NCBI RefSeq assembly: GCF_004359215.1
Contig: NC_090624.1
Span: forward strand, 1,846,503-1,910,502
DNA from: Bremia lactucae
Taxonomy: Eukaryota > Oomycota > Peronosporomycetes > Peronosporales > Peronosporaceae
Length of the DNA stretch: 64,000 bases
Direction: 5' to 3'
Shown here: positions 6,626 to 55,763 of the stretch, piece by piece
Layout of the letters: each line of letters begins with the position of its first letter
Numbering within the stretch: position 1 is the stretch's first letter
Notes under the pieces: generated by a model
Database searches by the model: none
What the model saw: only the letters and a program-made list of their open reading frames with translations
What the model was told of the DNA's origin: nothing
Translations under genes and position numbers: made by a program

Positions 6626-8100
6626 TTAAGCCATACCGGGACCCTTCCCACGTGGACTTGAAGGCGCTTGCGCCGAGACAGGCGGTCGTGCCGCAGATTG
6701 TTGCATCCTCACCAGCATATCCAACTGGCCCTCTAAACGAGGCTGCTGACGCTCCAGCGTCGAAAGACGGTCCCGAACCGCCTCAAAAGAGCTCTCAACC
6801 CGAGCAAGGACCTCACGGAGAAGTTGCACCTCGTGCCGTAGAGCATCAAATGCTTCCGCGAAATTTCGGCCCCCCCCTCCCGCGCTGCTTGATGCGCGGG
6901 GGAACCTTCAGTTTCATGTGGAGAAACTTTTAAAGCGACGTCGTCGTGAGGGTCAATACCAGTATCTGGTGAAGTGGCTTGGGTACCCCTATTTCGAAAA
7001 CTCTTGGGAGTTCGAGGTACCTCTTCGGCAAGATTGCCCGTACGCCGTTGACGTTTTTGAGCGCCAAGCTCAGGGTCAACTCGCGTCAAACGACGATTCC
7101 CACCACTAAACGTGGGATTAGGTGGATCTAAAGCCTCAGTACGGCTTCGATCCTTGGTTGTTCGGTCAACCGAAGCACTGAAATATCGGCTAGGCCTCTC
7201 TTCGTTTTGTGGCATAAAATTCCAAACGTTATTGGCCTTTGGCCTTAAGCTTAGCGAAGTCGAAGCGAAGCTTCCGTTCCAAATGAACATCACCTCTATC
7301 CGCAGACTCTCAGATATTCCAGATATTACGGAGTTTGCGGACCCGGTGAACCCAGTTCTCCAATGAGACTTCGTTTTCACTCCTTGTATCGTTTGGAAAC
7401 AAAACGATCGGCTTTCCCCCCATGGAGGTCACCGAAGCCCCACGGGCTTGATCACATAAACGCGTCAGATACTGGCTTCGCGTCATTACCTTCGGCGTAA
7501 GGTATTGCTCATGAAGAGCGTCGCGGGCAGCGATCTCCTCCGGCGTTCTCGCCAGGTCACCAGAGATCCAGATGGCCAAGCTATGACCCGCTATCTCTTT
7601 GAGACGCTCGTCCGCACTAAGCGGAGTGAATCTGTATCCACTATGAGCCTTAGCATTCGCTATCTCGGCAGCTCGACGACGAGCTCTTTCCTCTATGAGG
7701 ATTATTTGCTCTTGCTCTTCATCGAGCGGATTCGTAATGATGTTGGACTCAGGGTCCCGTGTCCTGCTCAATGCAGTTAAGACATCAACGGCACCACGTT
7801 CTGGGAACGGATTCGGGGCCGACGTTCATCCGGAGGAAAAGGCGTGAGCGAACGCCGCTCTTTTTCCTCCTTCTCTGACTGAGAGTGACTTTCAAAGTCC
7901 ACCATTCCCTCATCGTCGAGGAATGTGCTCAGAGTATGTGACTCACGCTTGATTGTCATGAGGCAAAGGAAAGAATAACACAACCGAGCGATTGGCTGTT
8001 TAGGTTCCAACCTTAAAGAGCAAATGAAGCGAATGTTGTCATTCATGTCAACAGTCTGATGGGGGCACACATCGGTTGGAGAACCATTGTTGTGGTACAT
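6626..8100 (-). pseudogene. B1 antisense ORF with C-terminal coiled coil
   Basis: Reading leftward from the 3' LTR, long frames cover 8100-7777, 7771-7310, 7380-6733 and 6829-6626. They are interrupted by about three frameshifts; one lies in the C run near 6870-6879. The N-terminal part is rich in Asp/Glu/Ser/Lys (DDEG, KEEKER). The middle has ARTPEEIAARDALHE and MTRSQYLTRL blocks. The C-terminus is a Leu/Arg/Glu/Gln heptad-like segment (VQLLREVLARVESSF, LEGQLDMLVRM). The same protein, ending in the same Met-Ala-stop, is found at copy B2 (16294-17706). The coil overlaps sense integrase/chromodomain coding. The true start may be the internal Met near 7965 rather than the one within the LTR. 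No known family recognised. Confidence 0.6.
6918..7109 (+). pseudogene. B1 chromodomain at the pol C-terminus
   Basis: 63 residues with QYLVKWLGYP, then FENSWEFEVPL. This is the aromatic/WEP-type chromodomain fold that ends chromoviral integrases and can direct insertion to modified histones. The expected aromatic residues are present (Tyr, Trp, Trp). The preceding frame (6619-6933) runs in another phase, so the domain is detached from integrase in this copy. Confidence 0.8.
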
Positions 8101-8540
8101 TTACTTAATGGGCAAAATACTATTTTATCTAATTTTATAATAGTTAGTTACTTAAATCCCATTTATTATGGGTAACAAATGTGGTCGCCGCCAGATATAA
8201 ATCTGGCGGCCAAAATCTACTTTTAATTAGCTAGGGTAAGATTTACATAATTCAATAATTAAACAAAGTGCAGTTTCCTTTTGATCTTAAAGCGTTAAAT
8301 GCCTTCCCTAGGCTTGCGCATTGATATGTAAGAGATAAAAGCCTTTCTAAGGTATATTTTCTTGGGCACTAGTTGCCAGTTGGCTCTACGAACCCCTGCA
8401 TCCCTTGAACTAGGATTCCTTAAGCTTTAATAGCTTGTACGACTCCCTGAGTTTTTAAACTCATTAGTTCAATAGAACTAAGTGACTCTCTGAGTCTGAA
8501 AGTCTTCCTCTGACTTTAGGAGCGAGGTAGCTCCGCTAAA
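8061..8540 (+). repeat. B1 3' LTR (5' edge deleted)
   Basis: Matches the 5' LTR from GGGCACACATCGG to CCGCTAAA, followed by TSD ACAAG (8541-8545). Compared with B2, the purine tract and the first ~11 LTR bases have collapsed: B2 reads (minus strand) CTGATGGGGGAGGG then TATAATGGGG, while B1 has CTGATGGGGGCAC only. The deletion post-dates insertion because the TSD is intact. Confidence 0.85.
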
Positions 8541-8584: not shown

Positions 8585-9007
8585 TGTAACGGGGTGTATC
8601 GTTACATAAAATTAACACTTAAAGGTTGTTAATTAATATGTTATCTAAAAGGTATATAATATTTTTTGGAGAATATTACTTTAAGTAGTACTGTTCAGAA
8701 ATTTTATCCATAAATAGGTATAGGCCATTATATCTATTTATCCCGCAGACAAATTAATTGTAGATGTAAGCAAAAGAGAGACAGATAAGATAAGATTTCA
8801 ATTGCATGTTTAGTATTAGTTTATAACTATGTTAGAGTTAACAGATAGAAAGAAGAGATACTTAATTATATTAAAACAGTTTTCATTTAACCCTCTTTAA
8901 GCCAATTGTCTTAAAGAGAAGTCCTCCTCTGCACTTTCTAGTGTACGCGAAATAACGTAAGGCACCACTCGCAACTGAAGCAGTACAAGTCGTAGTGCCC
9001 CGTTACA
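8585..9007 (+). repeat. Family A LTR, plus orientation
   Basis: 423 bp from TGTAACGGGGTG to GTGCCCCGTTACA. It is followed after CC by a TGGTAGCAC primer-site motif (9010-9018) and a gag start, so it acts as the 5' LTR of the next element. Confidence 0.9.
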
Positions 9008-11093: not shown

Positions 11094-12529
11094 CTATATC
11101 GACTCAAAGTCCGACAACCCCTGCCGACGACGCTGACGACGACTGGGACGAAGTTCTGCACGAGCGCGAGCAGACCCGTTCTGTTGGGGTCCACTGAACG
11201 CAGCAGTCTCGAGCTGTCGTAGACGCTCCACCAAGCTCTGCTGCTCCCGTCGGGTCCTCTCGGCAGCCTCTGTCGCAGCTGCTGCACGATCTCGAGCCCT
11301 CTCGGCCATCTCACGGGCATCCAGAAGGCCGTTCTTCGCCTCTTCAGTGTCAGCACGAAGGAAATGAAGCTCGTCACTCGACGGCACAGGCGCCCGATTA
11401 TGAGAATCGGCCTTCAACCCAAGAAGCCTTCCGTCGTGATGCTCCTCCTCCCTTGGTAGATGCATCGGGTGAGCGACGCTGGATTGTGGACCGTATCGTC
11501 GTCATGAAGACCCCACGCCTCTTCCGCCGAGTAGTGACTCGGCGCCATCGAAGAGTCGTTCTAAAACGCATTATAAGGTCCGATGGTTGGGTTATTCACC
11601 AACGGAAGACACGTAGGAGCCTCGAAGTATGCTGGCTCGCGATGTTCCTGACGTCGTTGAGGAGTACGAGACCAGTAAGAGGTCGGCGAACGCGACCGAC
11701 GCTGTTGACTGCTTCCACGATCCCGCGAACCGCGACGTGCGTGAATTGGCGATCGACGACGATCTCCCGAGCGACTCCGACGTCTTCTACGAGGCTCGGG
11801 AGCATTTGGATACCTTGACGATCGAGAGCGACTACGAGAACGACCTCGGTGGTCGTAAGACAAACGATCTCGGCTACGTGAACGCCTCCATTGATCGACA
11901 GGGCGCTCCCTCATGTGACGCAACACAGATACTTGGAGCTCTGAGAGGCTCCTCTCATAGCGTCCGGTCCATGGTCGGATGTGCTGGGACATTCCCCGTG
12001 CACACACCATGTCGTCCCATTCCTGCCGCATTGGTCGCGGTCTCTCCACGTAACACTGTGGGCACCCTTCACGGACATGGACGTAACACATGTGGAACTC
12101 ATCACGAGTCAAATGACATACGCGTCGTCGTAAGTCGCCAATAGCGTGGACGCCATGAGTATCTTCGCGTCCCTCGATCCAGGACGTGAAGGATGTCCCT
12201 TCACGTCGACTCGCGTTCTAGCGTCTGATGAAGGCACACCAAGACCGTTGCAGTGCGTCTTCAGTGTATGCGTGATTCGTTCCTTTGCCTCGAACGTTAC
12301 GGTATCGTGTGAAGAGATTCTTCATGGACTCTAGTGATTCAGGTTGGTGAGCGCCTTCAAGGCTGTACAAGCCCCACGGCTTCAAGTCGTCATCCATGGT
12401 CTGCGGTGCATGCTCTCTTCGAAGTGTCTGATGACCCCAACTGTCGTTTGGGGTCGAGTCGCGTCGGTGTTCAGGATTCATGCTGCTCAGTTGTTCGTGA
12501 CTGAGCAGATTCGAAGACCAAGATGACAT
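11094..12529 (-). pseudogene. Family C antisense ORF: Cys cluster, SR-rich region, coiled coil
   Basis: Starts at 12529, about 105 bp inside the 3' LTR, and reads leftward. The first ~100 codons end at a TAG (12220-12218), but the same frame continues without further stop to 11561. It includes a Cys-X9-Cys-X7-Cys-X2-Cys cluster (about 12065-12125, CHLTRD ... GCPQC) and a strongly basic SR/RD-rich stretch (RSRSRDR, RGRSRSRSRSS, RRRRRSRSGDRRR; about 11640-11930). After a frameshift, 11465-11094 encodes a long Ala/Arg/Glu helix (AREMAERARDRAAAATEAAERTRREQQ) predicted to coil. SR repeats suggest RNA binding or nuclear localisation; that is inference. No family recognised. Confidence 0.6.
11453..11690 (+). 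pseudogene. Family C chromodomain with premature stop
   Basis: Reads ERRWIVDRIV at 11468-11497, then after a frame change HYKVRWLGYSPTEDT, TAG, EPRSML. The stop at 11608-11610 replaces the conserved Trp of the WEPRS motif (TGG to TAG). This is the C-terminal targeting domain of a chromovirus Pol, inactivated here. Confidence 0.7.
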
Positions 12530-15903: not shown

Positions 15904-16338
15904 CAGAGAGTCACTTACTTTCATTGAACTAATGGGTTTAACAACTCAGGGAGTCGTACGAGCTATACAAGCTTAAGGAATCCTAGTTGAAGGGATTCAG
16001 GGGTTCGTAGAACCAAGTGGCAGCTAGTGCCCAAGAGGATAAACCTTAGAATGGCTTTTATCTCTTACAGATCAATGCGGAAGCCTTAGAAAGGCACTTA
16101 ACGCTTTAAGATCAAAAGGGATCTGCTTTTATTTAACTATCTTAATCTAAAACCTTACCCTAGCTAATTTAATTTAGATTTTGGCCGCCAGAGTTATATC
16201 TGGCGGCGACCACATTTGTTACCCATAATAGATGGGATTTAAGTAACTAACTATTTTAAAATTAGGTAAAAGGGTATTATACCTCATAAGTAAATGTACA
16301 ACAACAACGGTTCTGCAACCGATATGTGCCCCATTATA
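15904..16338 (-). repeat. Family B LTR, truncated (3' LTR of B2)
   Basis: Reverse complement of the B1 LTR, starting within it (CAGAGAGTCACTTA) and ending CCCCATTATA. About 47 bases of its 3' end are missing where the D LTR begins. The internal purine tract of B2 follows at 16339-16352. Confidence 0.85.
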
Positions 16339-17706
16339 CCCTCCCCCATCAGACAGTTGACACAGAGGGACAACATTCGCTCCATTTCCTCTTTGAGGTT
16401 GGAACCTAAACAGCTAATCGTTTGGTTGTGTCTTACTTTTCTTTATCTCCTGACAATCAAGCGTAAGTCACAGACTCTTAGCGCCTTCCTCGACGATGAG
16501 GGAATGGTGGACTTTGAAAGTCACTCTCCATCAGAGGAGAAGGAGAAAGAGCGTCATTCTCTCACGCCTTCTACTCCCGATGAATGTCGGCGGGCCCCAA
16601 ATCCGTTCCCAGCACGTGGTGCCGCTGATGTCTTAACTGCATTGAGCAGCGAATCCGCTCGATGAAAAGCAAGAGCGGATAATCCTCATAGACGTCGGGC
16701 TGCCAAGATAGCAAAAGCTAATGCTCATAGTGAATATAGAATCACTCCGCTTAGTGCGGACGAGAGTCTCAAAAAGATAGCGGGTCACAGCTTGGGCACC
16801 TGGATCTCCCATGACCCGGCGAGAACGCCGGAGGAGATCGCTGCCCGCGACGCTCTTCATGAGCGATATCTTACGCCAAAGGTAATGACGCGAAGTCAGT
16901 ATCTGACGCGTTTACGTGATGAAGCTTGTGGGGCTTTGGTGATTTCCATGAGGGAAAGTTCCGATCGTTTTGTTTCCAAACGAAACGATGAGTGAAAACA
17001 TAGTTTCATTTGAGAATTGGGTCCACCGGGCCCGCAGCTTTTGTAACATCTGGAATATCAGCGAGTCTCCGGATATGGCTGATGTTCGTTTAGAACAGAA
17101 GCTTCGCTTCGATTTCGCTAAGCTTTAGGCCAAAGGCCAGTTACGTTCGGCATTTATGCCACAAAACTAAGAAAGGTCTAGCCGATATTTCAGTGCTTCG
17201 GTCGACCGTACAACCATGGATCGAAGCCGCACTGAGGCTATAGATCCACATAATCCCACGTTTAGTGGTGGGAAGCGTCGTTTGACGCGAGTTGACCCTG
17301 AGCTTGGCGCTCAAAAACGTCAACGGCGTACGGGCAATTTTGCCGACGAGGTACCTCGAACTCCCAAGAGTTTTCAGAAGAGGGGTTCCCTCGCCACTTC
17401 ACCAGAAACTGGTATTGACTATTACGACGACGTCGCTTCAAAAGTTTCTCCACGCAAAACTGAAGGTTCCCCCGCGCTAAGCATTTGATGCTCTAAGGCA
17501 CGAGGTGCAACTTCTTCGTGAGGTCCATGCTCGGTTGAGAGCTCTTTTGAGCCGTTCGAGACCGTCTTTCGACGATGGAGCGTCAGCAGCCTCGTTTAGA
17601 GGGCCAGCTGGACATCCTGGTGAGGATGCAACAACCTGCGGCACGACTGCCTGTCTCGGCGCAAGTGCCTTCAAGTCCACGTTGGAAGGATCCCGATATG
17701 GCTTAA
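16294..17706 (+). pseudogene. B2 antisense ORF
   Basis: Homologue of the B1 antisense ORF. 16294-16665 carries the charged N-terminus (DDEGMVDFES, KEKERHS) and starts inside the LTR. 16792-16995 carries the ARTPEEIAARDALHE and MTRSQYLTRL blocks. 17216-17488 carries a basic segment (KRQRRTG). 17483-17706 carries the C-terminal heptad region, ending in the same Met-Ala-stop as B1. Relative to B1 there is a short deletion near 16660-16700 and separate frameshifts. Two independently decayed copies sharing one order and one C-terminus argue for a once-functional ORF. Confidence 0.6.
17262..17453 (-). pseudogene. B2 chromodomain
   Basis: 63 residues closely similar to the B1 domain (QYQFLVKWRGNP, ENSWEFEVP). 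The Tyr of the B1 KWLGYP motif is replaced (RGNP), which would alter the aromatic pocket. It is out of frame with integrase. Confidence 0.75.
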
Positions 17707-19398: not shown

Positions 19399-19839
19399 TG
19401 TAGCGGAGTGTATCGTTACATGAAATTAACACTTAAAGGCTGTTAATTAACATATTATCTAAAAGGTATAGAATATTTGGAGAACATTTCTTTGCATTGT
19501 AATTTCCGGAAAGCTTATCGATTGGTACATAAAGGCCATTATATCTACTTTCTCCGCGGTCCAGTCAGCGCTTGACGCGCCCAAAGAGAGAGACAGATAC
19601 GGATTTGTCACATGTTTTGTATGAGTTTACAATTAATTTAGTATTAAATAGATAGAAACAGAAGAACTTGATTACGTTACATACAATTTACTTTTAACCT
19701 ACTTTAAAGCAAGTGGTATAAAGAGAGTCTTCCTCTGCACGTACTAGTGAACGTCAAGTGACGTGAGGCACCACTCGCACTGAAGCAGTGCGAAGTGGAC
19801 TTGTACTGAAGCAGTACAAGTCGGTAGTGCCCCGTTATA
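19399..19839 (+). repeat. A2 5' LTR
   Basis: 441 bp, TGTAGCGGAGTG to GTGCCCCGTTATA, followed by CC and TGGTAGCAC (primer site, 19842-19850). It is inserted in the B2 reverse transcriptase. Confidence 0.9.
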
Positions 19840-24440: not shown

Positions 24441-25037
24441 ATGGCAGTACGCACTAAGCGTACTGAAAATGACAAATCAAATGAGTTAGCAGAAGAATTT
24501 CTGCTAACTCGAGAATCAATAATCCGTTTCGTTCAGGATTCCATTGCTAACGCAGTGGACCGCCAGAAACGGAATGCAGACAAACATGGAAGAGCAAATG
24601 TTCATTCCTATACAATAAATGATCTAGTGCTACTCTCTACGGTTAACTTACCTAAGCGATTACTCACCAATGTGGGTAGCACTAAACCACTACCCAAGTT
24701 CATTGGTCCTTTTCGTGTACTGCATCGCAGAGGCAATGCGTACACAATAGAATTGCCACGTAGGATGCGAACGCATCCTACTTTTTACGTTGGTCGGCTC
24801 CGCCATCAGTACGCGGCTTCTTCCGAGGACGGATTTGACCACCCTTTTCAAGAATCCCCAAAAGATTCTTGTGATCGCAAACCAGATTCTCATGTTGAAC
24901 CTGAAGTTTCTCATGCCGGTTCCGAATATCCTCGAAACTGCGATGAGCTGACGACAGCTCATCGCGAACAGCATGATATTTCTGTTCGTACTCCAACATG
25001 TTGTACGCACTCTTCGAACGGTCTTCCAACCGCTTGA
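24441..25037 (+). pseudogene. A2 integrase C-terminal region
   Basis: 198 open codons: TRESIIRFVQDSIANAVDRQKRNAD, INDLVLLSTVNLP, LPKFIGPFRVLHRRGNAYTIELP and RMRTHPTFYVGRL, the standard GPY/F-type C-terminal module. The last 70 residues overlap, on the opposite strand, the coiled-coil end of the antisense ORF. Confidence 0.75.
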
Positions 25038-26749
25038 TATGGTGAGCCTGCACCATCTGCTCCAACGAGCGACGCTTGCCGCGCTCGTGATCAAGCCCCT
25101 CCTCCAAATCATGGAGGAAGTGGTCGATTTTGTCGATCCTCGACATTAGATCCGACATACGGTTCGGATCTAATTTTCCCTCCTCCACCATAACCATTGG
25201 TGGTTTCCCACGGTGATCAACGTTTCTTTGTGGAACGTATCCAAAACCACCGTGATGTGAAGGGGCAGCGAACGAGTTATCTTGTTCACTGGCGTGGTTA
25301 TCCACCTTCACATGATAACTGGGAGCCTCGTTCCCAGCTGGTTGCTGACGTTGAGGGCCTCGTCCGTCAGTATGACGAAACCCATCCGATGGTTCAGAAG
25401 TCCCATCGGAAAACACGCGCCCCTCGCGCTTGTAAATCTATTGCAAAACGTCAATCGCATCACGCATCTCAATAGAGATGCGAGCCCTTCCCCAGGGCGA
25501 AGAAATGGAATAGACATCCCCTTTTACTCTCTTCGTGTTGTCAACACAACACGGACAGGGATCACCCCACGTGAGGCTTGGAAGCCCAGCCTCACGTGCC
25601 AACTGCAATTTATACTTTGCACTGGTTGGAGTTCGTTTCTTCTTCTTCTTTTGACTCTTTTAAAATTTCTAAATTATGTTTATATACGTAATTTCTCTTT
25701 CTTTATCAGGTATTTTAATTCGAACATCTACATCAAGAAATAATGAGAACAGCTATTTTAGGTTTCACTCAGGCTCACGCCAAAAGCTTCTTCACGACCC
25801 CACGCCCTCCTACTCATTAACGCTTACATGTGCTATCGCGTTAACGGCAAAGTATAAGTAACTTGCTTAAGCGCCATCCATTTTCAGGGCTAGTTCTCAC
25901 ATTTAACCCGATCCGCGTTAAGTTTTTGAAGCCAGGCCTCGCGTCCAATGTCTTTGACATTGCGAATGAACGCGTTTCAGGCTTGCATAAGCGAGACTTT
26001 ATCTCGCTTATTGTTGCCACTAAACCATCGATGCTTCAAAAAGAATCGAGATAAAAATCTTCCCCAGCGCGAAAGTTCTTCGCGCTGGGATCAAGGCCAT
26101 GTAGCTTTGTCGCAATAAAAAAAGGATTTTTATTGTGAGGAGTAGTTTCTCCAGACAAGCTATTAAATAGCCGCTCTGGCAAAAGCCACGGCTTCTTTTC
26201 AGGGGCAAGATGAGACATTTTACTGTCTTCATTCCCCAGAGTGGTAACCACTGAAGCAGGGGTACCACAAGAACTTTTCTTACGATGGCTTACGCCATCG
26301 TCATCACCTTGCACAGAAATAGGTGCAGGTGACCGTACGGGAGACGGAACGGGCGATGAGGGATCATCCTCATCGTCGGATCCAAATAGACTATTAACTC
26401 GTCTATCAGAATGAGCCTTCTCATTCGAAGGCTCATAGTCAGCCGCCTGACGTCTATCAGGCGACTGTTCCATTCTCCCGGAGTCGGCCATTTTATCCGA
26501 CTCGCATTCGTAGTCGACTTCCAAAGAGGGGTCGTACTCACGTGGTGAATCACCACGTGCACTCGCAACATCTAGTGTTGTGCGAGTGGAAGATACTACG
26601 GCAGACGTTCCGTCTACCGCAAGAGATAACAGTGCGTCACCCGCGGCTGCACGAACCGCAGCCGAAGGCGCAGCACTATCAAAACCCCGCATGAATTTTT
26701 TCTTCATGCGATGGAATTTAAAATTATGGTTCTGACCAATCAACATCAT
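24778..26749 (-). pseudogene. A2 antisense ORF: acidic N-terminus, basic middle, coiled-coil C-terminus
   Basis: Starts 75 bp inside the 3' LTR (26749). The 237-codon N-terminal frame is Ala/Asp/Glu/Ser-rich (DYECESDKMADSG, FGSDDEDDPSS) and ends after a conserved KLHGLDPSAKNFRAGEDFYLD block. The middle (about 26035-25417) is broken and holds two extra blocks (25637-25895 and 25504-25611) absent from copy A4. The last frame, 25416-24778 (212 codons), is a strong heptad helix (SDLMSRIDKIDHFLHDLEEGLDHERGKRRSLEQ; and a second run to NLLGILEKGG), ending in a basic tail. It overlaps chromodomain and integrase on the sense strand. Copy A4 (48889-50430) has the same parts in the same order. No known family recognised. 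Confidence 0.65.
25197..25475 (+). pseudogene. A2 chromodomain
   Basis: RFFVERIQNHRDVKGQRTSYLVHWRGYPPSHDNWEPRS is the full chromodomain core (in pieces: three-strand sheet plus WEP helix entry), with aromatic cage positions Phe/Tyr, Trp and Trp kept. It is followed by a short basic tail. It overlaps the antisense ORF fully. Confidence 0.85.
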
Positions 26750-26809: not shown

Positions 26810-26824
26810 TTAAGGGAGGGGTGA
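26810..26824 (+). other. A2 polypurine tract
   Basis: TTAAGGGAGGGGTGA before the 3' LTR. The complementary tract CCCCTCCCTTAA is kept beside the LTR at 48770. Confidence 0.65.
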
Positions 26825-27260
26825 TGTAACGGGGTGTATCGTTACATTAAATTAACACGTAATTGCTAATTAATATATTATCTAAAACGTAGATAATATT
26901 TGGAGGATGTTACTTTATATAGTAATGTTCAGAATTCTTATCCATAAATAGGTATATACCATTATTTCTATTTATTCCGCAGACTAATCAGCTGTAAACG
27001 TAAACAAAGAGAGAGACAGATAAGATTTCAACATGTTTAGTATTAGTTTATAATTAGGTCAGCATTAACAGATAGAAAGAAGAGATACTTAATTATATTA
27101 ATACAGTTTTCGTTTTACCCTCTTTAAGGTAGTTGTCTTAAAGAGAAGTCTTCCTCTGCACGTACTAGTGTACGTGAAATAACGTAAGGCACCACTCGCA
27201 ACTGAAGTAGTGCGAAGTAGACTTGTACTGAAGCAGTACAAGTCGTAGTGCCCCGTTACA
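26825..27260 (+). repeat. A2 3' LTR
   Basis: 436 bp, TGTAACGGGGTG to GTGCCCCGTTACA. It differs from the A2 5' LTR at many positions (for example several indels), so the two did not arise recently from one insertion. Confidence 0.9.
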
Positions 27261-27339: not shown

Positions 27340-27767
27340 TATAACGGGGCACTACGACTTGTACTGCTTCAGTTGCGAGTGGTGCCTTACGTTATTTCAC
27401 GTACACTAGTACGTGCAGAGGAAGACTTCTCCTTAAGGTAACTAGCTTAAAGAGAGTAAAATGAAAGCTGTATTAATATAATTAAGTATCTCTTCTATCT
27501 ATCTTGTAAATGCTAACTCAATTATAATATAATACTAAATATGCAATTGAATTCTTATCTTATTTTATCTGTATCTCTCTTTTGTTTATCTCTACAGCTG
27601 ATTAGTCTGCGGAATAAATAGATATAATGGCCTATACCTATTTATGAATAAGAATTCTGAACATTACTATATAAAGTAATATCCTCCAAATATTATCTAC
27701 CTTTTAGAAAATATATTAATTAACAACCTTTAAGTGTTAATTTCATGTAACGATACACCCCGTTACA
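27340..27767 (-). repeat. Solo family A LTR with target duplication
   Basis: 428 bp inverse A LTR, TATAACGGGGCAC to CACCCCGTTACA. TAGGG stands on both sides (27335-27339 and 27768-27772), the 5-bp target duplication. No internal sequence is attached, so it is a solo LTR left by LTR-LTR recombination. Confidence 0.9.
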
Positions 27768-27772
27768 TAGGG

Positions 27773-30879: not shown

Positions 30880-33672
30880 CTACTCAAATGCATAGTTTGG
30901 ATGAAGGGTTAAATACCGCTGCTGGTTCTTCTCATCTTTGTCATCAAGAGACAATTTCTCGGTGCTTTCCAATACTTTCTTCACGCTATTCTCACCAATC
31001 TCGTCATCGTCTTCAAGGTCGACAACCGACAAGATTTTATCATGCACGAGTTTGTCAATCACTGAACAAATCATGTGCTTCTCCCGTATGAGTTCGGCCT
31101 CGGACGTAATGTCTTGAGACGATAAATACCACGTCACCAGCTCTCCTTGTAACACACCTCTTTCGTCGTCTTCAATCTCGTCGTCTTTCAAGTCATCCTC
31201 GTTCAATGGATTACGACGGGCGACACGAACACGATCACTTTGCTCTTCTTTGTCTCGAATGTATCGTCCAATGGCCTTTTGAATGCGTGCAAAGCGCTCA
31301 AAAGTGACCGACGTCACCGTCTTGGATTCCAGCTCGTCAATGTTTCGAGCATCCTCTACCGACTCCCTACAACTCGTTTCATCGTCCTCCTCCTTTTCCT
31401 CCTTGTCTTTCAAATCCGGCATTTCAAACGCAATCTCTTGCGTATCAACGTGAATAATCGACTTGCTCAAGAGCCGATACGCTTCGTAAACGTGTGTCAC
31501 CAACACTTTCTCACTCAAATCCAGTCGTGCCAAAGCTTCCGACAATCGAATCATGGATTCAAGTTGTCGCACGGTAATTCGATACGCAATATTCGATTGT
31601 CCATTACTCACGACATCGTTTTCGCGTAAACTTCGATAACACGCAACCATCGTTCGTTTCGTCTCAATGGTAATCACGGGATTCAATGTCCGAGCAAATT
31701 TAATATACCGCTTGAGTTCTTCTTCACTATACGCACCCGTACTGGTCGTTTCTACCTGCAAGGCCACGGGCATATGCAAATTAACAATATGTTCGGCAAT
31801 TTTCGCATCCGTGCTTTCGTCGCCATCGTCCAAGACGACAAAGAACAAATCAAATCGTGACATAATGGGCGCTGAAATATTGACATTATACTTGAGCGTC
31901 TTGGTCTTGTCGTATCGACCATGATACGGATTCGCCGCCGCCAAGATACTCGTGCGTGCATTCAAAGTGGCTTGAATACCTGCTTTGGTAATCGAGATGG
32001 TCTGTTGCTCCATGGCTTCGTGAATTGCCACTTGATCCATAGGATCCATCTTATCAAACTCATCAATACAACAAATGCCATTATCCGCAAGCATTAAAGC
32101 GCCAGCTTCAATACAATAGTCGCCACTATCGGCATCTCTCGTCACGGAGGCGGTTAATCCTGCCGCGGAACTCACTTTTCCAGATGCGTAGATAGCTCGT
32201 GGTAAAAATCCGACAATGTATTTAAGAAATTGTGACTTGGCCGTTGACGGGTCACCAACAATACAAATGTTAATATCTCCTCGAAGTTCAATCCCTTCAT
32301 ACGTCGTCTTGTGGACACCACCAAAGAGCATGAGTAGAATGCCTTTACGAATCTCGTCGTGACCATACACTGATGGACAAATGGATTTGGCCATTTTTAA
32401 ATACCGATCCGGATCCTGTTGCATCGTTCGAATTGACGCCAATTCTTCGTCACTAAAGTCCTCAAGTCCCGCTTCGTCATGCGCGTCTCGATCGACGCTA
32501 TCGTCCGGGACGTCACTTCGAATGGAAATGCTATTAAAGCGCTGTTCCATCGTTTGAACACTACACGCTAAGAAACACGTCTTGTACGTTAATTCTCGTA
32601 CACCAAGAGCTTTCAGACCGCGTACACCTTCGCCCTGCATGCCTTGTGTACTGTGTTCTCCCGTCTGTCGTCGTGCTTGTGTATTCGATCGATTCGCCAT
32701 AGCTGTCTCGCCACCGGCTTTGGCAAATTTAGACACGTCTGGAACAACAATAAACGTGCCTGTAAACACAACACGGTCGCCAGCTTTTGCCTGTTCGACG
32801 TTTTCATGGCGTAAGATCACATCAATCGACCGCGGCATGCTTCCCGCTGGAATCTCGTCACTATTTTCCTGCACTTTAACCCGTTGCCAGTCGACAAAGA
32901 CAGATTTACTCGTATTGAGTTCCCATGCAAAAGTATTGGCACAGTACGGATTGTGGCACTTGAGAGGCTCCGAGTATCGGAATTGCTGCTCCACGCCCGT
33001 GGTATCGCCGCCACAATCAACACACGTAAACGCACCAAAGAGCAGCTCTGGACGCACGTCGGATGTCCGTGTTACCGTGCCTGAGAACGACAATAACTCG
33101 CCAATGCTCTTGGTTCGAAGATCCCGAATACTAGACAAAGAAGGACGAGGCAATATTTTTTTCTTAGTCCAATACTATTGTCAATTGCCTCTTTACATTT
33201 TTTTTTCGTACTGCGACACGTGCTGGAAATTGTAAAAATTAACAAAAAACTCGCGCTGCGTCTTGTTGGCGTCCTCATTAATTGTATACGCGGCGTCCTC
33301 GTGGCGAATAAACTCAAAGACACTCCGTCGTAAGTACGGTTCCCATCGATAGTATTGCGCCTGAAGAGCCTGGGCCAAGTCAGGATCGAACTCAAGGACA
33401 TGAGAAAAGTCGACAAAGAGAGACGATGTTTCTGTGTGGCGCATCACCTCGGCCTGGTGACTGTAATTAATCTTGGCGGGACGTATACCTTCGTCAGTCT
33501 CATCCTGTTGTCCGTAGCTACATAGAAACTGAAGAAATCGAGCGTTCACAGCCTCAGCCGTTGCGTCGATTAATAGCTCTACGGGTGCGGCACTTGGGTT
33601 GAGCGCGGGAGCTCCGCCACGAGCTCGTTTCGTACCCACGCTTGCTCCATTGGAGCTGCTTGTTGTAGCCAT
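30880..33672 (-). CDS. MCM6: MCM6, replicative helicase subunit
   Basis: Two exons, 33672-33212 and 33130-30880, join to a 903-codon protein (human MCM6 is ~820 residues, budding yeast ~1,020). Motifs in the joined protein: zinc-binding Cys at ~190, 193, 212 and 217; Walker A GDPSTAKSQ ~446-454; Walker B CIDEFDKM ~508-515; arginine finger SRFD ~578-581. The C-terminal part has an acidic insert (KEEKEEDDE) and a winged-helix-like end. The zinc and OB region, with PRGS/PAGSMPRS and VVPDVSKF blocks, is MCM6-type rather than MCM2-5 or 7. MCM6 is part of the MCM2-7 hexamer, which is loaded at origins in G1 and unwinds DNA with CDC45 and GINS. The ATG at 33672 gives MATTSSSNGAS. The gene appears intact and lies between retroelement blocks. 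Confidence 0.93.
33131..33211 (-). other. MCM6 intron
   Basis: 81 nt, GTACGA ... GTCTAG on the minus strand. Splicing joins codons CA+T and restores FYNFQHVS-H-IRDLR, the spacing found in other MCM6 proteins (FYNLP...IRDIR). Unspliced, the exon 1 frame hits TAA. A shorter GTAAAG...CTAAG alternative does not keep the frame. Confidence 0.75.
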
Positions 33673-34919: not shown

Positions 34920-36236
34920 TGCCACCTAAAAGGGGCCACGTTGGTGGGTCGTCTGCGAAGACGCCCACTCAGCCTCACACTAAGCGCCGCGTTAATTCGC
35001 CGGCCGCGTCCAATGCCTTAGTCGAAACGCCGACAGCTACTGCTGCTGCGCGTTAACAGGGCTAAAGGATCCATCCCACCTTTACAGTGAGGATGTTGAT
35101 CCGTCGCTCATTGTCGACTACAATGAGTCGTTACTGTTGCCGTCACCTCATAGAAGTGATACGGACAACGAGCTCATGAGGAAGGATGATGGCGCATTAT
35201 TGCCCATCCAAACTTTTTTCATGGCTCACAACATGGAGACAGCAGCATTTACGAATGATGACTCGTCGTCTGCGCTGGAAAGGGCAGCGACAGGTAATGA
35301 GAGCGCTGTCCAAAAAGGCGCAGACGCTTTTCCGTTGGGTATAACCACAACGCCATATGCTCAGACCATAATCCATAATGGCTCTGACATAGAGGATTCG
35401 GAGCCTAAAGCTCCGCCGACGACACGTGAACGTGCTCAGTTGGTGTCACAAGCCAGTCGTTTCGAACGTGGCTGGCATTCCAAAGATGCCCCCTCCATCT
35501 AAATGGCCTCGTTTAAGCGGGCCAAGAGCGTCGCTCCTAGAGCGCGCTCTTGTAGACGCACGTAATAATTATGGCGTCTTTAAATCATGGAGGGCTCAGG
35601 GAAAATCGCTTTGGCGTATTTTTCCGATCTTGGTCGTGTTGCGTTTAAATGAAACGCTCGACCAATAAGAGGCGTATTTTTTTGCGCTGTATATATCCGC
35701 ATTCCGATGCGATGAAACAGAGCGAATTAATTTCGCCCGCTTATGTGTGAAAGAAATAATGGGCGGTACTGTACCCCCTGTTTCTTCTCACAACGCTGCT
35801 TCTGCTAGTCCATTTGAGACTAGCGAAGAGGCCTCAGCTGGTGCTCCTTTTCATAGGCAGCCACCAAGCCGGGCACATCAATACTTATGGTATCGATCGG
35901 TTTCCAAGAGTCAAAATTCTTCAGGTAACCTTTCCATTGGATGAGGATCTGATACCCTTGCCTCACGGAGCGGTGGGTAAGCAACCTTCCAACAAGGAAG
36001 CGTTGATTCTCACCCACATCCATCAGTGCAGGTGGTGCCCGATCGGAGTGGCGATCTCGCCCACCTACTCGCGGCTGCCTTACCTTCGTCCGTTCAGTCA
36101 TATGCGTTAAGCGCTGCTGAACGACGTATTGCGGATCTCGAGGGTCAAGTCTGTCGACTGACTTCGGATCTCGTTGATGTCCGAACGAAGGCTCGTCAGG
36201 GTTATGAACGCCCGAAGACTCGCATTGCAATTTTAG
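34920..36236 (+). pseudogene. D2 antisense ORF with C-terminal coiled coil
   Basis: Begins 132 bp inside the 3' LTR (34920, MPPKRGHVGGSS, basic, nuclear-signal-like KRR). A TAA and a frameshift occur at ~35054. The next frame, to 35502, is Ser/Asp/Ala-rich (DNELMRKDDG). After another shift, 35465-35668 holds DARNNYGVFKSWR. The last frame, ~36086-36236, is a heptad helix (SAAERRIADLEGQVCRLTSDLVDVRTKA). The coil overlaps, antiparallel, the sense linker between integrase and chromodomain, as in families A-C. This is the fourth family with the same layout; function unknown. Confidence 0.5.
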
Positions 36237-36272
36237 GTAGGGTAGAATTGCTAATAGTACTTTTTCACCCAC
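35820..36272 (-). pseudogene. D2 integrase tail and chromodomain
   Basis: 150 open codons. The last ~60 are a chromodomain (RFLVGRLLTHRSVRQGYQILIQWKGY, FDSWKPIDTI). The usual WEP is Trp-Lys-Pro. The first ~90 are a charged linker whose opposite strand encodes the coiled coil. Confidence 0.75.
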
Positions 36273-37060
36273 TCTAAAGCGTTCATTATTTTTGCGACCA
36301 TTTCGGTCCGCATATTATTTTTGCTTGTCCTGTGCGCTTGCCATTGCGCCACGGACTTTACGTGTGATGGCTAATCGCTCATCCACAAAGCGTTGAGTCT
36401 CGCTCACGCTTTTAGCATCAAACTCGCCTATGATACCGCCAAGAGGTTGGTCATAAGGCGTCGTTTTATTGACCACAGCGAAACTGGCAGGGTCACTAGG
36501 GCAAGTTTCAGTCGTTGAGATGATACCCTCCTGGGTCATCGTCATATTGACGAAACGATGTCCCTCTTTCGCACCGAGCATAGTGAGGGGCCCTCCCCCA
36601 CTATGACTCGAGCTGCGCACAAACGAGACTGGCGTCCGAGGATGGCGCGTCCATTAATATAAAACGGTGTCCAACCCGTACTGACGTGGACACTGTTATT
36701 TATAGCGAACTCCACAAAGGCAATTGCTTGCTCCACTCTTTGGGAGCTGCTATAGTGCGCAAGACATCCGCCACGACCCGATCGGCACGTTCTGTTTGGC
36801 CATCGGTCTGGGGATGATCTGCGGTCGACATGTGGAGCTTGCTACCTAGCAGCTCGAACACATGTCGCCAAAAACCAGACGTAAAACGTGGATCCCGGTC
36901 CTATACTATGGACTCGGGCATCCCGTGTAGTCCGTAAACATGATCCAGGAACAAGAGAGCTGCCTCCTTGCCTGTGATCGATGTTTTACATGGTGCTAAA
37001 TGCACCATCTTGCTCAGTCTGTCTACAAAGACGACTAGGGCTGTCCGACACTTATAATCG
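36273..37060 (-). pseudogene. D2 integrase core and C-terminal region
   Basis: VEFAINNSVHVSTGWTPFYING is clear at 36716-36650, with an integrase C-terminal helix (RFVDERLAITRKVRGAMASAQDKQK) at ~36395-36315. Reading backward, 36770-37060 holds the TDGQTERADRV, DRDPRFTSGFW and VVFVDRLSKMVHLAP-type blocks in mixed frames. Confidence 0.7.
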
Positions 37061-48340: not shown

Positions 48341-48360
48341 AATTTCTCACGCGTTACGTG

Positions 48361-48770
48361 GTTCAGTACAAGTCCACTTCGCACTGCCTCAGTGCGAGTG
48401 GTGCCTCACGTCACTTCACGTACACTATTACGTGCAGAGGAAGACTCTCTTAAAACAATTGCTTTAAAGAGGGTTAATGAAAATCTCTATCTAATATAAT
48501 TAAATTCTTCTGTTTCTATCTATTTAACACTAACTTAATTATAAACTAATACAAAACACATAATAAAGTCTTATCTGTCTCTCTCTTTGCGCGCGTCCAG
48601 CGGACTGGACCGCGTAGAAAATGGATATAATGGTCTTAAATACCAACGGATAAGCTTTTAAGATTATTGCCATGTAAAGTAATATTCATTAAATATTATC
48701 TAACTTTTAGGTAACATATTAATTAACAACCTTTATGTGTTAATTTCATATAACGATACACCCCGTTACA
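48361..48770 (-). repeat. Family A LTR shared by A3 and A4
   Basis: Starts inside the LTR (TTCAGTACAAGTCC) and ends CACCCCGTTACA. Gag leader of A3 is on its left and the 3' purine tract of A4 on its right, so it is the 5' LTR of A3 and the 3' LTR of A4 at once. Confidence 0.8.
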
Positions 48771-48888: not shown

Positions 48889-50445
48889 ATGGTTAACAAG
48901 TCCATGCGGTATGCGAATAGTGCGGCGCCTTCGGCTGCGGATCATGCAGCCGCGAACGACCCATTATTGTCTCTTGCGGCAGACGTTCCGTCTGCCGTAG
49001 TGTCATCTTCTCCCGCAACTCTAAATGTTGCGGGTGCACGTGGTGATGCACCACGTGAATGCGACCCCTCTTTGGAGGTCGACTACGAATGCGAGTCGGA
49101 CGAAATGGCCGACTCGGGGGGAACACAACAGTTGTCTGATCTTCGTCAGGCGGCTGACTATGAGCCTTCGAATGAGGAGGCTCATTCGAGTAGATGTGCT
49201 GGTAGCATTCGCTACAGCATATTCAGTTCCGACGATGAGGATGATTCCTCAGCGCCAATACCGTCTCCCGTGCCGTCACCGACACAATTTTCTGTGCGTG
49301 GTGATGACGATGGCATAAGCCATCGTAATAAAAGTTCTTGGTGGTACCCCTGTCTCAGTGGGTACCAATCAAAGGATCGTAGACTATAAAATGTCTCGTC
49401 TTGCCCCTGAGAAGAAGCCGTGGCTTTTGCCCGATCAACTAATCAAAAGCTTGTGTGGCGAAACTACCCCTCACAATAAATATCCCTTTTATTGCGACAA
49501 AGCTACATGGCCTTGATCCCAGCGCGAAGAACTTTCGCGCTGAGGAAGATTTTTATCTCGATGCTCTTTCAGCATCGTTGGTATAGTGGCAATAATAAGC
49601 GAGATAAAGTCTCGCTTATGAAAGCCAGGAGCGCGTTCATTCGCAATGTTAAAGACGTTGGACGCGAAGCCTGGCTTCAAAGACTTAACGCGATTCGCGT
49701 TAAGTTTGAGAAACGAACTTTAACCGGTGCAAGGTATGGGGAAGGGCTCGCATCTCTATCGAGATGCGCGATGCGATTAACGTTTCGCAATCGATTTACA
49801 CGCGCCAGGGGCGCGTGTTTTCCGAAAAACCTTCTCATCCATCCGATGGGTCTCGTCATACTGACGGACGAGGCCCTCAACAAACGGACGGTCGAGGCCC
49901 TCAACGTCAACAATCCGCTGGGAACGAGGCTCCCAATTGTCATGTGAAGGTGGATAACCGCGCCAGCGAACAACATTACTCGTTCGCTGCCACTTCACAT
50001 CTCAATATTTTTTGGATACGTTCCAGAATAAAACGTTGACCACCGTGGAAATCCACCAATGGTTGTGGCGGAGGAGGAGAAATTAGATCCGACCCATGTG
50101 TCGGATCTAGAGTCGAAGATCGACAAACTCGATCGCTTTCTCCATGATTTGGAGGAGGGCTGGATCACGAGCGCGGTAAGCGTCGCTCTTTAGAGCAGAC
50201 GGTGCAAGCTCATCATATCGAGCGGTTGGAAGACCGTTGGAGTACGAACGGAATATCACGCTCTTCGTGATGAGCTTTCGTCACCTCGTCGTGATTTTCG
50301 AAACACGTCGAATTCGGCATGAGAATTCCCAGACTCAACATTAGAGTCTGGTTCGTGATCACAAGAATCTTTTAGGGATTCTTGAAAAGGGTGGTCATAT
50401 CCGTCCTCGGAAGAAACCGCGTACTGATGGTACGGGCGGAGCCGA
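48889..50445 (+). pseudogene. A4 antisense ORF
   Basis: ATG at 48889, 119 bp inside the LTR. N-terminal frame 48889-49389: SAAPSAADHAAANDPLLSLA and DYECESDEMADSGG, then SSDDEDDSS. After a shift, 49490-49947: LHGLDPSAKNFRAEEDFYLDAL, then NKRDKVSLMKARSAFIRNVKDVGREAWLQRL. After another shift, 49764-50039: HPSDGSRHTDGRGPQ with a short tandem duplication. The coiled-coil end is broken but recognisable from 50090 to 50310 (DDLEEG, ERGKRRSL, HHIERLEDR). It keeps the central part that A2 has lost, and lacks the two blocks at 25504-25611 and 25637-25895. Confidence 0.6.
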
Positions 50446-51288: not shown

Positions 51289-51727
51289 TGTAACGGGGTG
51301 TATCGTTACATGAAATTAATACTTAAAGGTTGTTAATTATTAAAGTATCTAAAAGGTTGATAATATTTGGAGAATATTACTTTACATGGTAATTTTTACA
51401 GGCTTATCCATTGGTAGATATAGACCATTATATCTACTGTCCCCGCGGTCCAATCAGCGCCGGACGCGCGCAAAGAGAAAGACAGATAACACTTTTAGTA
51501 CATATTTTGTATTAGTTTTTAATTAAGTTAGTATTAAGTAGATATCAAGAAGAACTTAATTGTATTAACACAGTTTTCATTTAACCCTCTTTAAAGCAAG
51601 GGGATTTTGGAGAAGACTTCCTCTGCACGTACTAGTGTACGTGAAGTGACGTGAGGCACCACTCGCACTGAGGCAGTGCGAAGTGGACTTGTACTGAAGC
51701 AGTACAAGTCGGCAGAGCCCCGTTACA
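51289..51727 (+). repeat. Family A LTR (3' LTR of A5)
   Basis: 439 bp, TGTAACGGGGTG to AGAGCCCCGTTACA, preceded by the A 3' internal end. Confidence 0.9.
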
Positions 51728-52062: not shown

Positions 52063-52399
52063 TTAAGGTAACTAGCTTAAAGAGGGTAAAATGAAAACTG
52101 TATTTATATAATTAAGTGTCTCTTTTTCTATCTTTGTAAATGCTAATTTAATTATAATCTAATACTAAACATGTAATTGAATTCTTATCTCTATCTCATC
52201 TGTAACTATCTCTTTGATTACTCCTACAGCTGATTAGTCTGCGGAATTAATAGATATAATGGTCTATACCTATTTATGGATAAGAGTTCTGAATATTACT
52301 ATATAAAGTAATATTCTGCAAATATTCTTTACCTTTTAGATAATTTATTAGTTAACAACCTTTAAGTGTTAATTTCATGTAACGATACACCCCGTTACA
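52063..52399 (-). repeat. Family A LTR, truncated, minus
   Basis: Matches 27424-27767 (TTAAGGTAACTAGCTTAAAGAG ... in pieces) and ends CACCCCGTTACA. About 85 bp of its left end are missing at the N. It lies ~280 bp before the start codon of the next gene. Confidence 0.85.
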
Positions 52400-52676
52400 A
52401 GTACAATTAATGAGGTTTTATAGATATTACAAGCCTTCCTGCATAAGTGCTGTATCACTCAGCTGCAAGAAGTTTAATTGTGTTGTGCACCTTCTCCTTG
52501 CCGAAAATGAAAGACTTGTGCCGCCCGAAGTTTTCGTGACCTGCACAAAACGATTGGAAGTTTATATTAAAATTCTACAATAATTTGAACCACTACAAAC
52601 CAGATGTACCAGATCAAATAAAGGCCAATCAAAGCAACTGTAGTCGACAGCTGTTGCATTGCATGATAATCACGCA

Positions 52677-55600: not shown

Positions 55601-55763
55601 CGTGGACGACTTGGAGCGTGGCGAGGCTCATTCTACTTTGTCTGCTCGTACAGACGTTCACACAGTCACTGAACGAAGGACAAGTCGAGTGCGACGATTT
55701 TTAGCATTTGCTGAAGCATTTACAGCATGTCTATCGGCCTACAACCCAAAGGCACAATCTTAA
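52677..55763 (+). CDS. Multi-pass membrane protein, unrecognised
   Basis: 1,028 residues from the first in-frame ATG (52677; the frame is open 18 bases further to a TTG). A ~205-residue polar N-terminus is followed by a first membrane segment (~206-228, WAWLGIGVGVAVWLGV). A ~175-residue loop (~229-403) has three Cys and an N-glycosylation sequon (NNSSS). Five more hydrophobic segments follow: ~404-428 (AYLLLFLPYIIITLFGL), ~516-537, ~546-562, ~596-624 (FFLQLLVVILLTLV) and ~630-660. Between the second and third is a Cys-rich loop (CGPCCWQKC); after the sixth is LCPYCTERIKHCDC. The ~370-residue C-terminus is charged and helical. One TM, a large outer loop, then further TMs is reminiscent of polycystin-type or receptor-like proteins, but no signature is found. 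A single exon with no stop indicates a working gene. An A LTR lies close upstream. Confidence 0.8.
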   Translation: MPTPDVDENDLAGGRRSLRSIHSIKKSSQWHRKRRYTSAESNSFSRVEYRDRATSDWDEREATNRPLTKEASILFKDLTRLADNNEPVHYDTFRQSSVLRHSRNSEAIHHNVMFNEERKEQKTEDETTGQLNTELLEAYLAYCKSIGHEPNITISDETLSKESDNERSGTDTLAAAYTPERPAVPVTHHFWTGWLGTRYSKQRGCVQFWAWLGIGVGVAVWLGVSLSGLHLNEVLHLDAFIVQKSQVTQDYTYLHFLDKVDFYLTYTIETSSSEIVPPLNNSSSYFNALLMYKTEYEHYTRGEPFQYVTKGSILHTTSAHLPRTYIDNTEGKSLYFVIQPCHLARAPTKNYCRSFQLPSSVSSKEKIYHLNNKARMRHHAAWEHFDVTYISVNPMPVSCRSSGIVGSAYLLLFLPYIIITLFGLRLFQMVIHCESFRQNIERTYARELSVPENEVDYWQPVPWDRKVPKTRLCGPCCWQKCRRPYEPFYTWWRHENYFTWMLYPYRNEQLSRGERTLIVVCSLYITFYVVFLIVMLRDSWGEDMTIFKSVVVYTILAGVLPSGGKAIFKELFKLIFRQRRKYFRNKASGRDLETFSFRVAFFLQLLVVILLTLVQGPIFYIWTFRSCLFLQHFIYYGVLAAVARMSLLGLVPDLVWYLILKTWGWKDLCPYCTERIKHCDCFNDEVLVLAIEHLGPKWTLIRDLDRLLAKEAQYESQFTLYTSEQLRERWDVIVERAETHMTKVAKLRMYCHKKQQDACCTSRVLTRKDHVLSSSHCDLENALAKEGIESTMPLCHVREEKILALHSKIQLDAFEKHYDSTIAEVFTALARSVKSRRRHEVLKTCMHVEGFHDMVERKSLCRNSDVRETGETMWVFDTPAQRLERRQEEKWQRKRAFRILKDVEMESSKDLSVEAASSPSSFDQKTQWMSLETAPNRLENRQEEKKMIVTPHSTCSNTKREQDSLDRDGYNSDKSVDDLERGEAHSTLSARTDVHTVTERRTSRVRRFLAFAEAFTACLSAYNPKAQS

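What the first reader, a model, noticed from the sequence alone, without database searches (positions are those of the whole stretch)
6626..8100. Conserved antisense ORF at the 3' end of four gypsy families (A, B, C, D)
Antisense reading frames start near the 3' LTR and run back into pol at 8100-6626 and 16294-17706 (B), 26749-24778 and 48889-50445 (A), 12529-11094 (C) and 34920-36236 (D). The start is 75-132 bp inside the LTR in A, C and D; in B the frame opens within or just outside the LTR. All end in a heptad-rich coiled coil on the strand opposite the integrase/chromodomain junction. The N-terminal parts are unrelated in sequence while the layout is the same. Two independently decayed copies each in A and B keep the same blocks and, in B, the same C-terminus. 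This suggests a selected accessory protein expressed from an antisense promoter in or near the 3' LTR. Comparable antisense ORFs are known from some plant Ty3/gypsy elements; I know of no report for oomycete chromoviruses. Possible roles (regulator, RNA-binding or particle partner, or antisense transcript control) are inference.
Basis: partly seen in the sequence, partly recalled or inferred. Interest (0 to 1): 0.92.

Follow-up and report, generated by a model that had tools for sequence, protein, structure and literature searches.

The report
Antisense gene hidden in oomycete retrotransposons
Several retrotransposon families in what is likely a downy-mildew (oomycete) genome carry a second gene on the opposite strand, overlapping the end of their main gene; its sequence evolves like that of a conserved protein, and it likely makes a nuclear helper or regulator of the element.

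Summary
The window copies do not hold single open antisense frames: the stated intervals are mosaics of frames with stops. But alignments of 26 (A), 21 (B) and 10 (C) copies show one antisense phase with no shared stop for 1737, 1488 and 1515 nt. About 1 kb of it in A and B, and 0.4 kb in C, lies beyond the pol stop, where no sense gene can explain it. There, substitutions shared by copies are codon-like in A and B. Against 12 diverged C-like loci, constraint switches strand: the sense frame is constrained in integrase and chromodomain, the antisense frame in the integrase-chromodomain linker, the pol tail and the antisense-only part. Homologues occur in Peronospora, Hyaloperonospora, Phytophthora and Albugo. 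The A and C proteins have a predicted helical domain, a largely disordered middle and a C-terminal coiled coil, and share an HCCC/CCCC zinc-site-like motif. So this is a real, selected antisense accessory gene that overlaps pol tail to tail. It is a variant of the antisense extra ORFs known from plant and fungal LTR elements (PMC7264820), not found for oomycete chromoviruses in the papers I could search. Nuclear regulation is inferred; transcription and function are untested. Family D was only partly testable.

The parts
6626..7959 (-). Family B copy 1: antisense gene (decayed, frameshifted), homologue-supported ATG at 7959, stop at 6628-6626
   Evidence: homologues P0143-P0152
7959..8100 (-). 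Upstream extension of the B antisense frame; initiator-like site near 8027 (majority position); likely 5' leader rather than coding
6930..7061 (+). Family B sense chromodomain opposite the antisense gene; pol stop at 7107-7109
   Evidence: Pfam PF00385 E=1.1e-12 in ORF 6750-7109
8062..8538 (+). Family B 3' LTR (pairs with 921-1394, 88.6% identity); edges approximate
16294..17706 (+). Family B copy 2: antisense gene (decayed)
24778..26692 (-). Family A copy 1: antisense gene (decayed), homologue-supported ATG at 26692; interrupted by a 253-nt insertion (about 25641-25893) not in the other copies matched; pol stop near 25475, chromodomain near 25224-25376
48889..50445 (+). Family A copy 2 (subfamily, about 82% identical): antisense gene (decayed)
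11094..12529 (-). Family C: antisense gene; ATGs at 12529 and 12481; pol stop near 12141; chromodomain about 11482-11673 by projection from L040
34996..35502 (+). Family D: antisense-only 168-aa open piece beyond the D chromodomain ORF
   Evidence: no stop in 93 of 150 scored matches (hand count); chromodomain in 35820-36314 minus
35760..36236 (+). Family D: putative C-terminal part of the antisense frame, opposite the chromodomain; not tested across copies

Best explanation
These chromodomain-bearing Ty3/gypsy elements carry a second protein gene on the antisense strand that runs from beside the 3' LTR back across the pol stop to the end of the integrase domain, has been kept by purifying selection while the elements spread, and likely encodes a nuclear accessory protein that helps or regulates the element. 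Shown: the frame, its conservation where no sense gene exists, its dominance over the sense frame in most of the overlap in family C, and its homologues in other oomycetes. Predicted: a helical domain of about 150-175 residues with a zinc-site-like HCCC (A) or CCCC (C) motif, a largely disordered middle (Arg-Ser-rich in C), a C-terminal coiled coil, and in A and C a basic tail like a nuclear signal. Inferred: transcription starts at an antisense promoter at the LTR/internal border; the coil oligomerises the protein; the zinc-like domain and basic tail bind the element's nucleic acid or chromatin in the nucleus and favour its expression, nuclear entry or escape from silencing. The overlap works because the two proteins take turns: in C the antisense protein's disordered part lies opposite the folded chromodomain, and pol's loose linker and tail lie opposite the coil, part of the helical domain and the Arg-Ser-rich stretch. 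I put the selected gene at about 0.93, a nuclear site of action at about 0.5 and this mechanism at about 0.3.
For: Shared-stop-free runs of 1737/1488/1515 nt in one antisense phase only, with the same relative phase in A, B and C. No shared stop in 345/336/140 codons of the run beyond pol, or 321/284/113 counted from the homologue-supported ATG. Shared substitutions there (from that ATG) fall at codon positions 12/11/34 (A) and 12/12/28 (B), while singletons are even (135/141/148 and 112/108/118); N/S 0.68 vs 2.73 (p=2e-6) and 1.00 vs 2.38 (p=0.006) (similar). C vs 12 diverged loci, median omega antisense/sense: antisense-only 0.41/1.08, pol tail 0.41/1.18, chromodomain 1.65/0.26, linker 0.33/1.30, pol only 1.60/0.27; antisense omega below 1 in 9 of 9, 11 of 11 and 10 of 10 loci for antisense-only, tail and linker. 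No antisense stop in 364 overlap codons vs 8.75 expected (P=4e-5), while upstream pol has 28 vs 29.8 expected. Homologues. AF2 models: A helical domain 170-345 and a 107-residue helix; C 53-208 and a 61-residue helix. Motif residues H282/C292/C299/C302 kept in 25/25/25/24 of 25 A-type rows; C138/C148/C156/C159 in 17/17/16/16 of 18 C-type rows. Heptad periodicity of the coils against 5000 shuffles: p=0.0014 (A), none reached (C), 0.0002 (B).
Against: No transcript or peptide was seen. No Pfam domain and no fold match names a function. In the overlap the A counts lean the same way but are not significant against singletons, and B is uninformative. Single-copy differences of the second A and B window copies show no codon pattern. 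The A-C domain comparison does not exceed shuffled profiles. B lacks the zinc-like motif (0 of 13 proteins) and has no clear basic tail. The initiator-like motif is on both strands in A and absent in C. For C alone the stop-free antisense-only stretch is not very unlikely by chance (0.009); there the case rests.
Confidence: 0.8

Rival explanations
1. The open antisense frames are a by-product of codon composition opposite pol, plus chance, with no protein made.
For: Antisense frames opposite coding DNA are often open (general knowledge); the stated window frames are broken.
Against: About 60-68% of the run in A and B lies outside pol (58-64% counted from the homologue-supported ATG) with no shared stop; antisense omega is about 0.4 there in C and shared substitutions are codon-like in A and B. 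Opposite pol in C, stops are depleted beyond what the sense protein implies.
Confidence: 0.03
2. What matters is the antisense RNA (double-stranded RNA, small RNA or transcriptional interference); the protein is incidental.
For: The review PMC7264820 (parts 1-2 of 3 read) notes that antisense transcripts of LTR elements may act as RNA.
Against: RNA-only function does not explain third-position freedom and stop avoidance in the antisense frame. It may act in addition.
Confidence: 0.05
3. The protein is structural: a capsid or RNP partner that works in the particle, not in the nucleus.
Against: The Arg-Ser-rich part of C and the basic tails of A and C look nuclear. This is not decisive.
Confidence: 0.2
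4. The antisense gene was a separate mobile or host gene that entered an ancestral element recently and is being carried along.
For: Named homologues are annotated as uncharacterised, hypothetical or unnamed proteins; origin unknown.
Against: It is present in all three families tested, in the same relative phase, across the chromodomain. A proline that the sense Trp-Glu of the chromodomain imposes on the antisense frame is present in 24 of 24 A-type, 16 of 17 C-type and only 6 of 10 B-type rows with a residue there (rows of this genome included). So the arrangement looks old, at least in A and C.
Confidence: 0.1

Closest known systems
Antisense additional ORFs of plant LTR elements (aORF-3R): maize Grande gene23, rice RIRE2, Silene Retand ORF4 (PMC7264820, parts 1-2 of 3 read; PMC11963269, passages)
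   Same: Antisense to gag-pol, next to the 3' LTR, present in most copies, protein of unknown function, thought nuclear and regulatory; Grande gene23 is transcribed from its own promoter.
   Different: Here the host lineage is oomycete (inferred) and the elements carry a chromodomain; the gene overlaps pol by about 476-1094 nt tail to tail and crosses the chromodomain. No TRP28 domain (PF04195) in the representatives scanned. PMC11963269 contains no word beginning 'overlap'.
brtn of the fungal Boty element (Botrytis), antisense (title of the 2011 report seen in the reference list of PMC8365987, passages; also named in PMC7264820)
   Same: Antisense extra gene in a gypsy element of a filamentous plant pathogen.
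   Different: Its sequence was not compared here; the named homologues of the proteins studied here are all oomycete.
HTLV-1 HBZ (recalled; its nuclear role is mentioned in passages of PMC11963269)
   Same: Antisense gene started at the 3' LTR, coiled coil, nuclear regulator: works-like analogy.
   Different: In A and C the basic cluster follows the coil, so the order is not that of a bZIP; no sequence comparison was made; a retrovirus of people, not an oomycete element.
Oomycete aRNH-bearing and chromodomain LTR elements (PMC5348765, passages)
   Same: Oomycete Ty3/gypsy elements with chromodomains.
   Different: The passages seen mention no antisense ORF, and the search listing counts 0 occurrences of 'antisense' in that paper.

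Membership tests
Antisense additional ORF between pol and 3' LTR (aORF-3R) | ORF antisense to gag-pol between pol and the 3' LTR | tested here: met
   Antisense-only stretch of about 1036 (A), 1009 (B) and 421 nt (C) between pol stop and LTR side
Antisense additional ORF between pol and 3' LTR (aORF-3R) | Present and conserved in most copies of a family | tested here: met
   No shared stop in 26, 21 and 10 aligned copies; codon-like constraint
Antisense additional ORF between pol and 3' LTR (aORF-3R) | Transcribed antisense, from its own promoter (as in Grande) | not testable with these tools
   Only an initiator-like motif in A and B, on both strands in A, none in C
Antisense additional ORF between pol and 3' LTR (aORF-3R) | Nuclear protein (as in Grande) | not testable with these tools
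   Basic tails in A and C are suggestive only
Retand-type antisense protein | Transposase_28 (TRP28, PF04195) domain | tested here: not met
   No PF04195 at E<=1 in P0001, P0004, P0002, P0003, P0005, P0023 or the D piece, nor in the full lists for 18 C-type and 13 B-type members; for the other A-type members of A1 only 25 of 45 families were shown
bZIP antisense protein of the HBZ kind | Basic region directly before the zipper (recalled) | tested here: not met
   Basic cluster lies after the coil in A and C; no clear cluster in the two B-type tails shown
Chromovirus (Ty3/gypsy with chromodomain) | gag, protease, RT, RNase H, integrase zinc domain/core, SH3, chromodomain in this order | tested here: met
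   Pieced from decayed copies: B PF03732 (below cut-off), PF08284, PF00078, PF17917, PF00385; A PF03732, PF00078, PF17917, PF17921, PF24626, chromodomain by tblastn only; C PF17921, PF00665, PF24626, PF00385. No RT tree was made

The most novel reading that the evidence does not exclude
Oomycete chromoviruses share an ancient antisense accessory gene, with at least three sequence types, that is interleaved with pol so that selection changes strand along one stretch of DNA: the chromodomain is nested opposite the disordered middle of the antisense protein, and pol's integrase-chromodomain linker and tail evolve mainly as the reverse image of the antisense protein. It would be an antisense regulator of LTR elements in a third major lineage besides plants and fungi.
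Probability: 0.6. Interest if true: 0.82.

Novelty: new variant of a known kind. Interest (0 to 1): 0.74.

Why it matters
Antisense extra genes of LTR elements have been described since the 1990s without a known function, mostly in plants (PMC7264820). Here one is supported by substitution pattern, not only by an open frame, in a separate eukaryotic lineage and with many natural copies. The strand-alternating constraint gives a clean natural example of how two proteins share one DNA stretch, and tells which parts of each must matter. It also suggests that large clusters of 'uncharacterised' proteins in oomycete proteomes (one Peronospora matthiolae cluster has 1335 members) are transposon genes.

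Tried and rejected

Rows dropped: 14 of 40 hit ids for A, 5 of 26 for B and 15 of 25 for C were left out as LTR-only, fragmentary, overlapping or diverged; L033 and L037, near-identical, both stayed. Genome searches scored 40 to 150 candidates each, the best ones. The 12 diverged C-like loci are not fully independent; one pair is above 80% identical over 744 nt, and p values count sites, not events.

Full report
What was checked. The finding names six antisense intervals in the window. Read as single frames they are not open; each carries stops in all three antisense frames. The question is therefore whether the families, not these copies, hold an antisense gene.

Copies. Searching the window's own genome (115.9 Mb, unnamed) gave many copies of each family; only the best 40 candidates were scored per DNA search. 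I aligned 26 A, 21 B and 10 C copies, each oriented on the antisense strand, and counted stops in columns held by the majority of copies, without writing a consensus. In each family one antisense phase has a long run with no stop shared by 40% of copies: 1737 nt in A, 1488 in B, 1515 in C; the second-best antisense phases reach 459, 288 and 600 nt. The sense frame of pol is open over its own part and ends inside this run. The antisense run thus has two parts: beyond the pol stop (about 1036, 1009 and 421 nt) and overlapping pol tail to tail (about 698, 476 and 1094 nt). The relative phase is the same in all three: antisense codon positions 1, 2, 3 face sense positions 1, 3, 2.

Chance. In the antisense-only part no triplet of the phase is a shared stop: 0 of 345 (A), 336 (B) and 140 (C), with odds of about 1e-8, 3e-8 and 4e-3 at the stop rate of the other five frames. 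Counted only from the homologue-supported ATG it is 0 of 321, 284 and 113, odds 1.7e-7, 3.7e-7 and 9e-3. So C is weak on this count alone. In the C overlap, given the pol protein and its codon use, 8.75 antisense stops are expected and none is seen (P=4e-5), while pol upstream of the overlap has 28 with 29.8 expected. Five of 10 C copies have a frame of 489-522 aa from stop to stop; one of these lacks the first ATG. For A and B, protein searches list some nearly full-length matches without a stop, e.g. 1-556 of 559 in A (78 candidates scored) and 1-451 of 451 in B (94 scored); most listed copies carry stops.

Selection, families A and B. Substitutions seen in three or more copies mostly predate insertion; singletons mostly follow it and serve as the neutral control. 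In the antisense-only run the shared ones fall at codon positions 16/13/37 in A and 14/14/30 in B; singletons are even (145/152/160; 130/135/137). N/S is 0.89 vs 2.81 in A (odds ratio 0.32, p=2e-5) and 1.07 vs 2.50 in B (0.43, p=0.005); shared stop gains are 0 in A and 2 in B, against 15 and 20 singletons. From the homologue-supported ATG the contrast is 12/11/34 vs 135/141/148 in A (odds ratio 0.25, p=2e-6) and 12/12/28 vs 112/108/118 in B (0.42, p=0.006). The other two antisense phases show no such depletion. One sense-strand phase is also lowered (A p=0.001, B p=0.04); its third position is the same column as antisense position 3, so it mirrors the same signal, and it is closed by 13 (A) and 7 (B) shared stops. 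In the overlap A leans the same way (14/16/28), B is too sparse; split by domain, the A linker has 9 vs 24 at antisense positions 2 and 3 and pol-only has 11 vs 4, but neither differs significantly from singletons. Differences private to the second window copies of A and B are even, as expected for decayed single copies.

Selection, family C. C copies are about 96-99% alike, so I compared one C copy with 12 diverged C-like loci (64-74% identity over the aligned stretches). Mismatch rates at antisense positions 1/2/3 are .226/.267/.406 in the antisense-only part.309/.274/.450 in the pol tail.235/.477/.238 in the chromodomain.228/.219/.428 in the integrase-chromodomain linker and .203/.382/.162 in pol upstream of the antisense stop. 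Position 2 is the sense wobble and position 3 the antisense wobble. Median omega (antisense/sense) is 0.41/1.08, 0.41/1.18, 1.65/0.26, 0.33/1.30 and 1.60/0.27 for the same regions. Antisense position 3 is more diverged than position 2 in 9 of 9 (antisense-only), 10 of 10 (tail), 0 of 10 (chromodomain), 10 of 10 (linker) and 0 of 9 (pol only) loci with enough sites. So the constraint changes strand along the DNA. The loci are related to one another, so site-based p values are too small; the per-locus consistency is the safer reading.

Homologues. The C protein has 17 matches in a 5.8-billion-protein set, named Peronospora destructor and seven Phytophthora species (fragariae, rubi, capsici, ramorum, infestans, idaei, megakarya) where a name is given. 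The A protein has 193, 120 of them listed, in Peronospora matthiolae, P. effusa, Hyaloperonospora arabidopsidis and unnamed records; one P. matthiolae cluster has 1335 members. The B protein has 11, including H. arabidopsidis, P. matthiolae and Albugo laibachii. None listed carries a precomputed Pfam domain except one integrase fusion. An indirect sign that they too lie opposite a chromodomain is a proline: sense Trp followed by Glu forces Pro in this phase. In the C copy this proline sits exactly opposite the TWEP of the chromodomain. It is kept in 24 of 24 A-type, 16 of 17 C-type and 6 of 10 B-type rows with a residue there, rows of this genome included. This is inference, and weak for B.

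Anatomy. Homologues place the start at 7959 in B (103 nt outside the LTR edge) and 26692 in A; in C at 12529 or 12481. AF2 models (25 and 18 sequences) give for A a confident helical domain at about 170-345 and a 107-residue helix at 430-536, for C a helical domain at about 53-208 and a helix at 385-445; most of the rest is below pLDDT 50. B was not modelled. The coil regions show heptad periodicity beyond shuffles in A, B and C. The A domain keeps H282, C292, C299, C302 (25, 25, 25 and 24 of 25), the C domain C138, C148, C156, C159 (17, 17, 16 and 16 of 18), with nearly the same spacing; the exact pattern is found in 101 of 122 A-type, 11 of 18 C-type and 0 of 13 B-type proteins held. Profile comparison of the A and C domains alone does not exceed shuffled controls. 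No fold or domain match names a function.

Promoter. The oomycete initiator is YCAYTYY, usually within 50-100 nt of the start codon (PMC3599244, passages). Within 125 nt upstream of the homologue-supported ATG it lies at 34-35 nt in 18 of 24 A copies and at 67-68 nt in 15 of 21 B copies (also at 15 nt in 16). As a control, the opposite strand has it in 20 of 24 A copies and 1 of 21 B copies; C has it on neither strand in 10 copies (narrower patterns). So this is suggestive for B, weak for A and absent for C. The first ATGs of the A and B frames lie upstream of these sites, which fits the later start.

Family D. Letters of D copies could not be fetched. A 168-aa antisense piece beyond the D chromodomain ORF was searched as a protein: 93 of the 150 scored matches have no stop in it (hand count; matches often cover about residues 15-166, and the best-scoring copies were chosen). 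That supports D in part; selection was not tested.

How it most likely works. The sense strand has gag and pol with a chromodomain, so the antisense protein is an addition. Its predicted parts (zinc-like helical domain, disordered middle, coil, basic tail in A and C) suggest a nuclear protein that oligomerises and binds nucleic acid or chromatin. I take nuclear help or regulation of the element as most likely (about 0.3 for this exact mechanism); a particle partner is the main rival.

Known kinds. Antisense extra ORFs between pol and the 3' LTR are known from plant elements and from Boty of Botrytis (PMC7264820, parts 1 and 2 of 3 read; PMC11963269, passages; PMC8365987, passages). This case meets their positional and conservation features, lacks the TRP28 domain of Retand in the representatives scanned, and differs by host lineage, by being in chromodomain elements and by the deep, strand-alternating overlap with pol. 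The literature searches named under Tried and rejected listed no report for oomycete elements; coverage is limited to open-licence papers.

Noticed in passing
window 26824-27218, 27357-27768, 8585-8990, 19399-19837, 48355-48770, 51356-51684, 52063-52399: Segments of about 330-440 nt similar to part of the A-family LTR occur many times in both orientations, including a close inverted pair at and just after the A1 3' LTR.
   Followed up: no
window about 25641-25893: A 253-nt insertion in the A1 copy, not in the other A copies matched.
   Followed up: no
protein P0153: An integrase core (PF00665) fused in frame to a piece of the B-type antisense protein: a recombinant or pseudogene.
   Followed up: no
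proteins P0035, P0036 (Peronospora matthiolae): Clusters of 524 and 1335 'uncharacterised' proteins are A-type antisense proteins, so likely transposon genes in a published proteome.
   Followed up: partly
protein P0028: Named 'Core-binding (CB) domain-containing' in UniRef, but no such family was among the 25 of 45 shown for the A1 members.
   Followed up: no
window 52644-55763 (+) and 30880-33174 (-): The two longest open frames of the window, 1039 and 764 aa stop to stop, not studied.
   Followed up: no
G000:C5:4168858-4170195: A C-type antisense protein only 36% identical to family C, matched over residues 24-478 without stops: probably a separate C-type lineage in the same genome.
   Followed up: no
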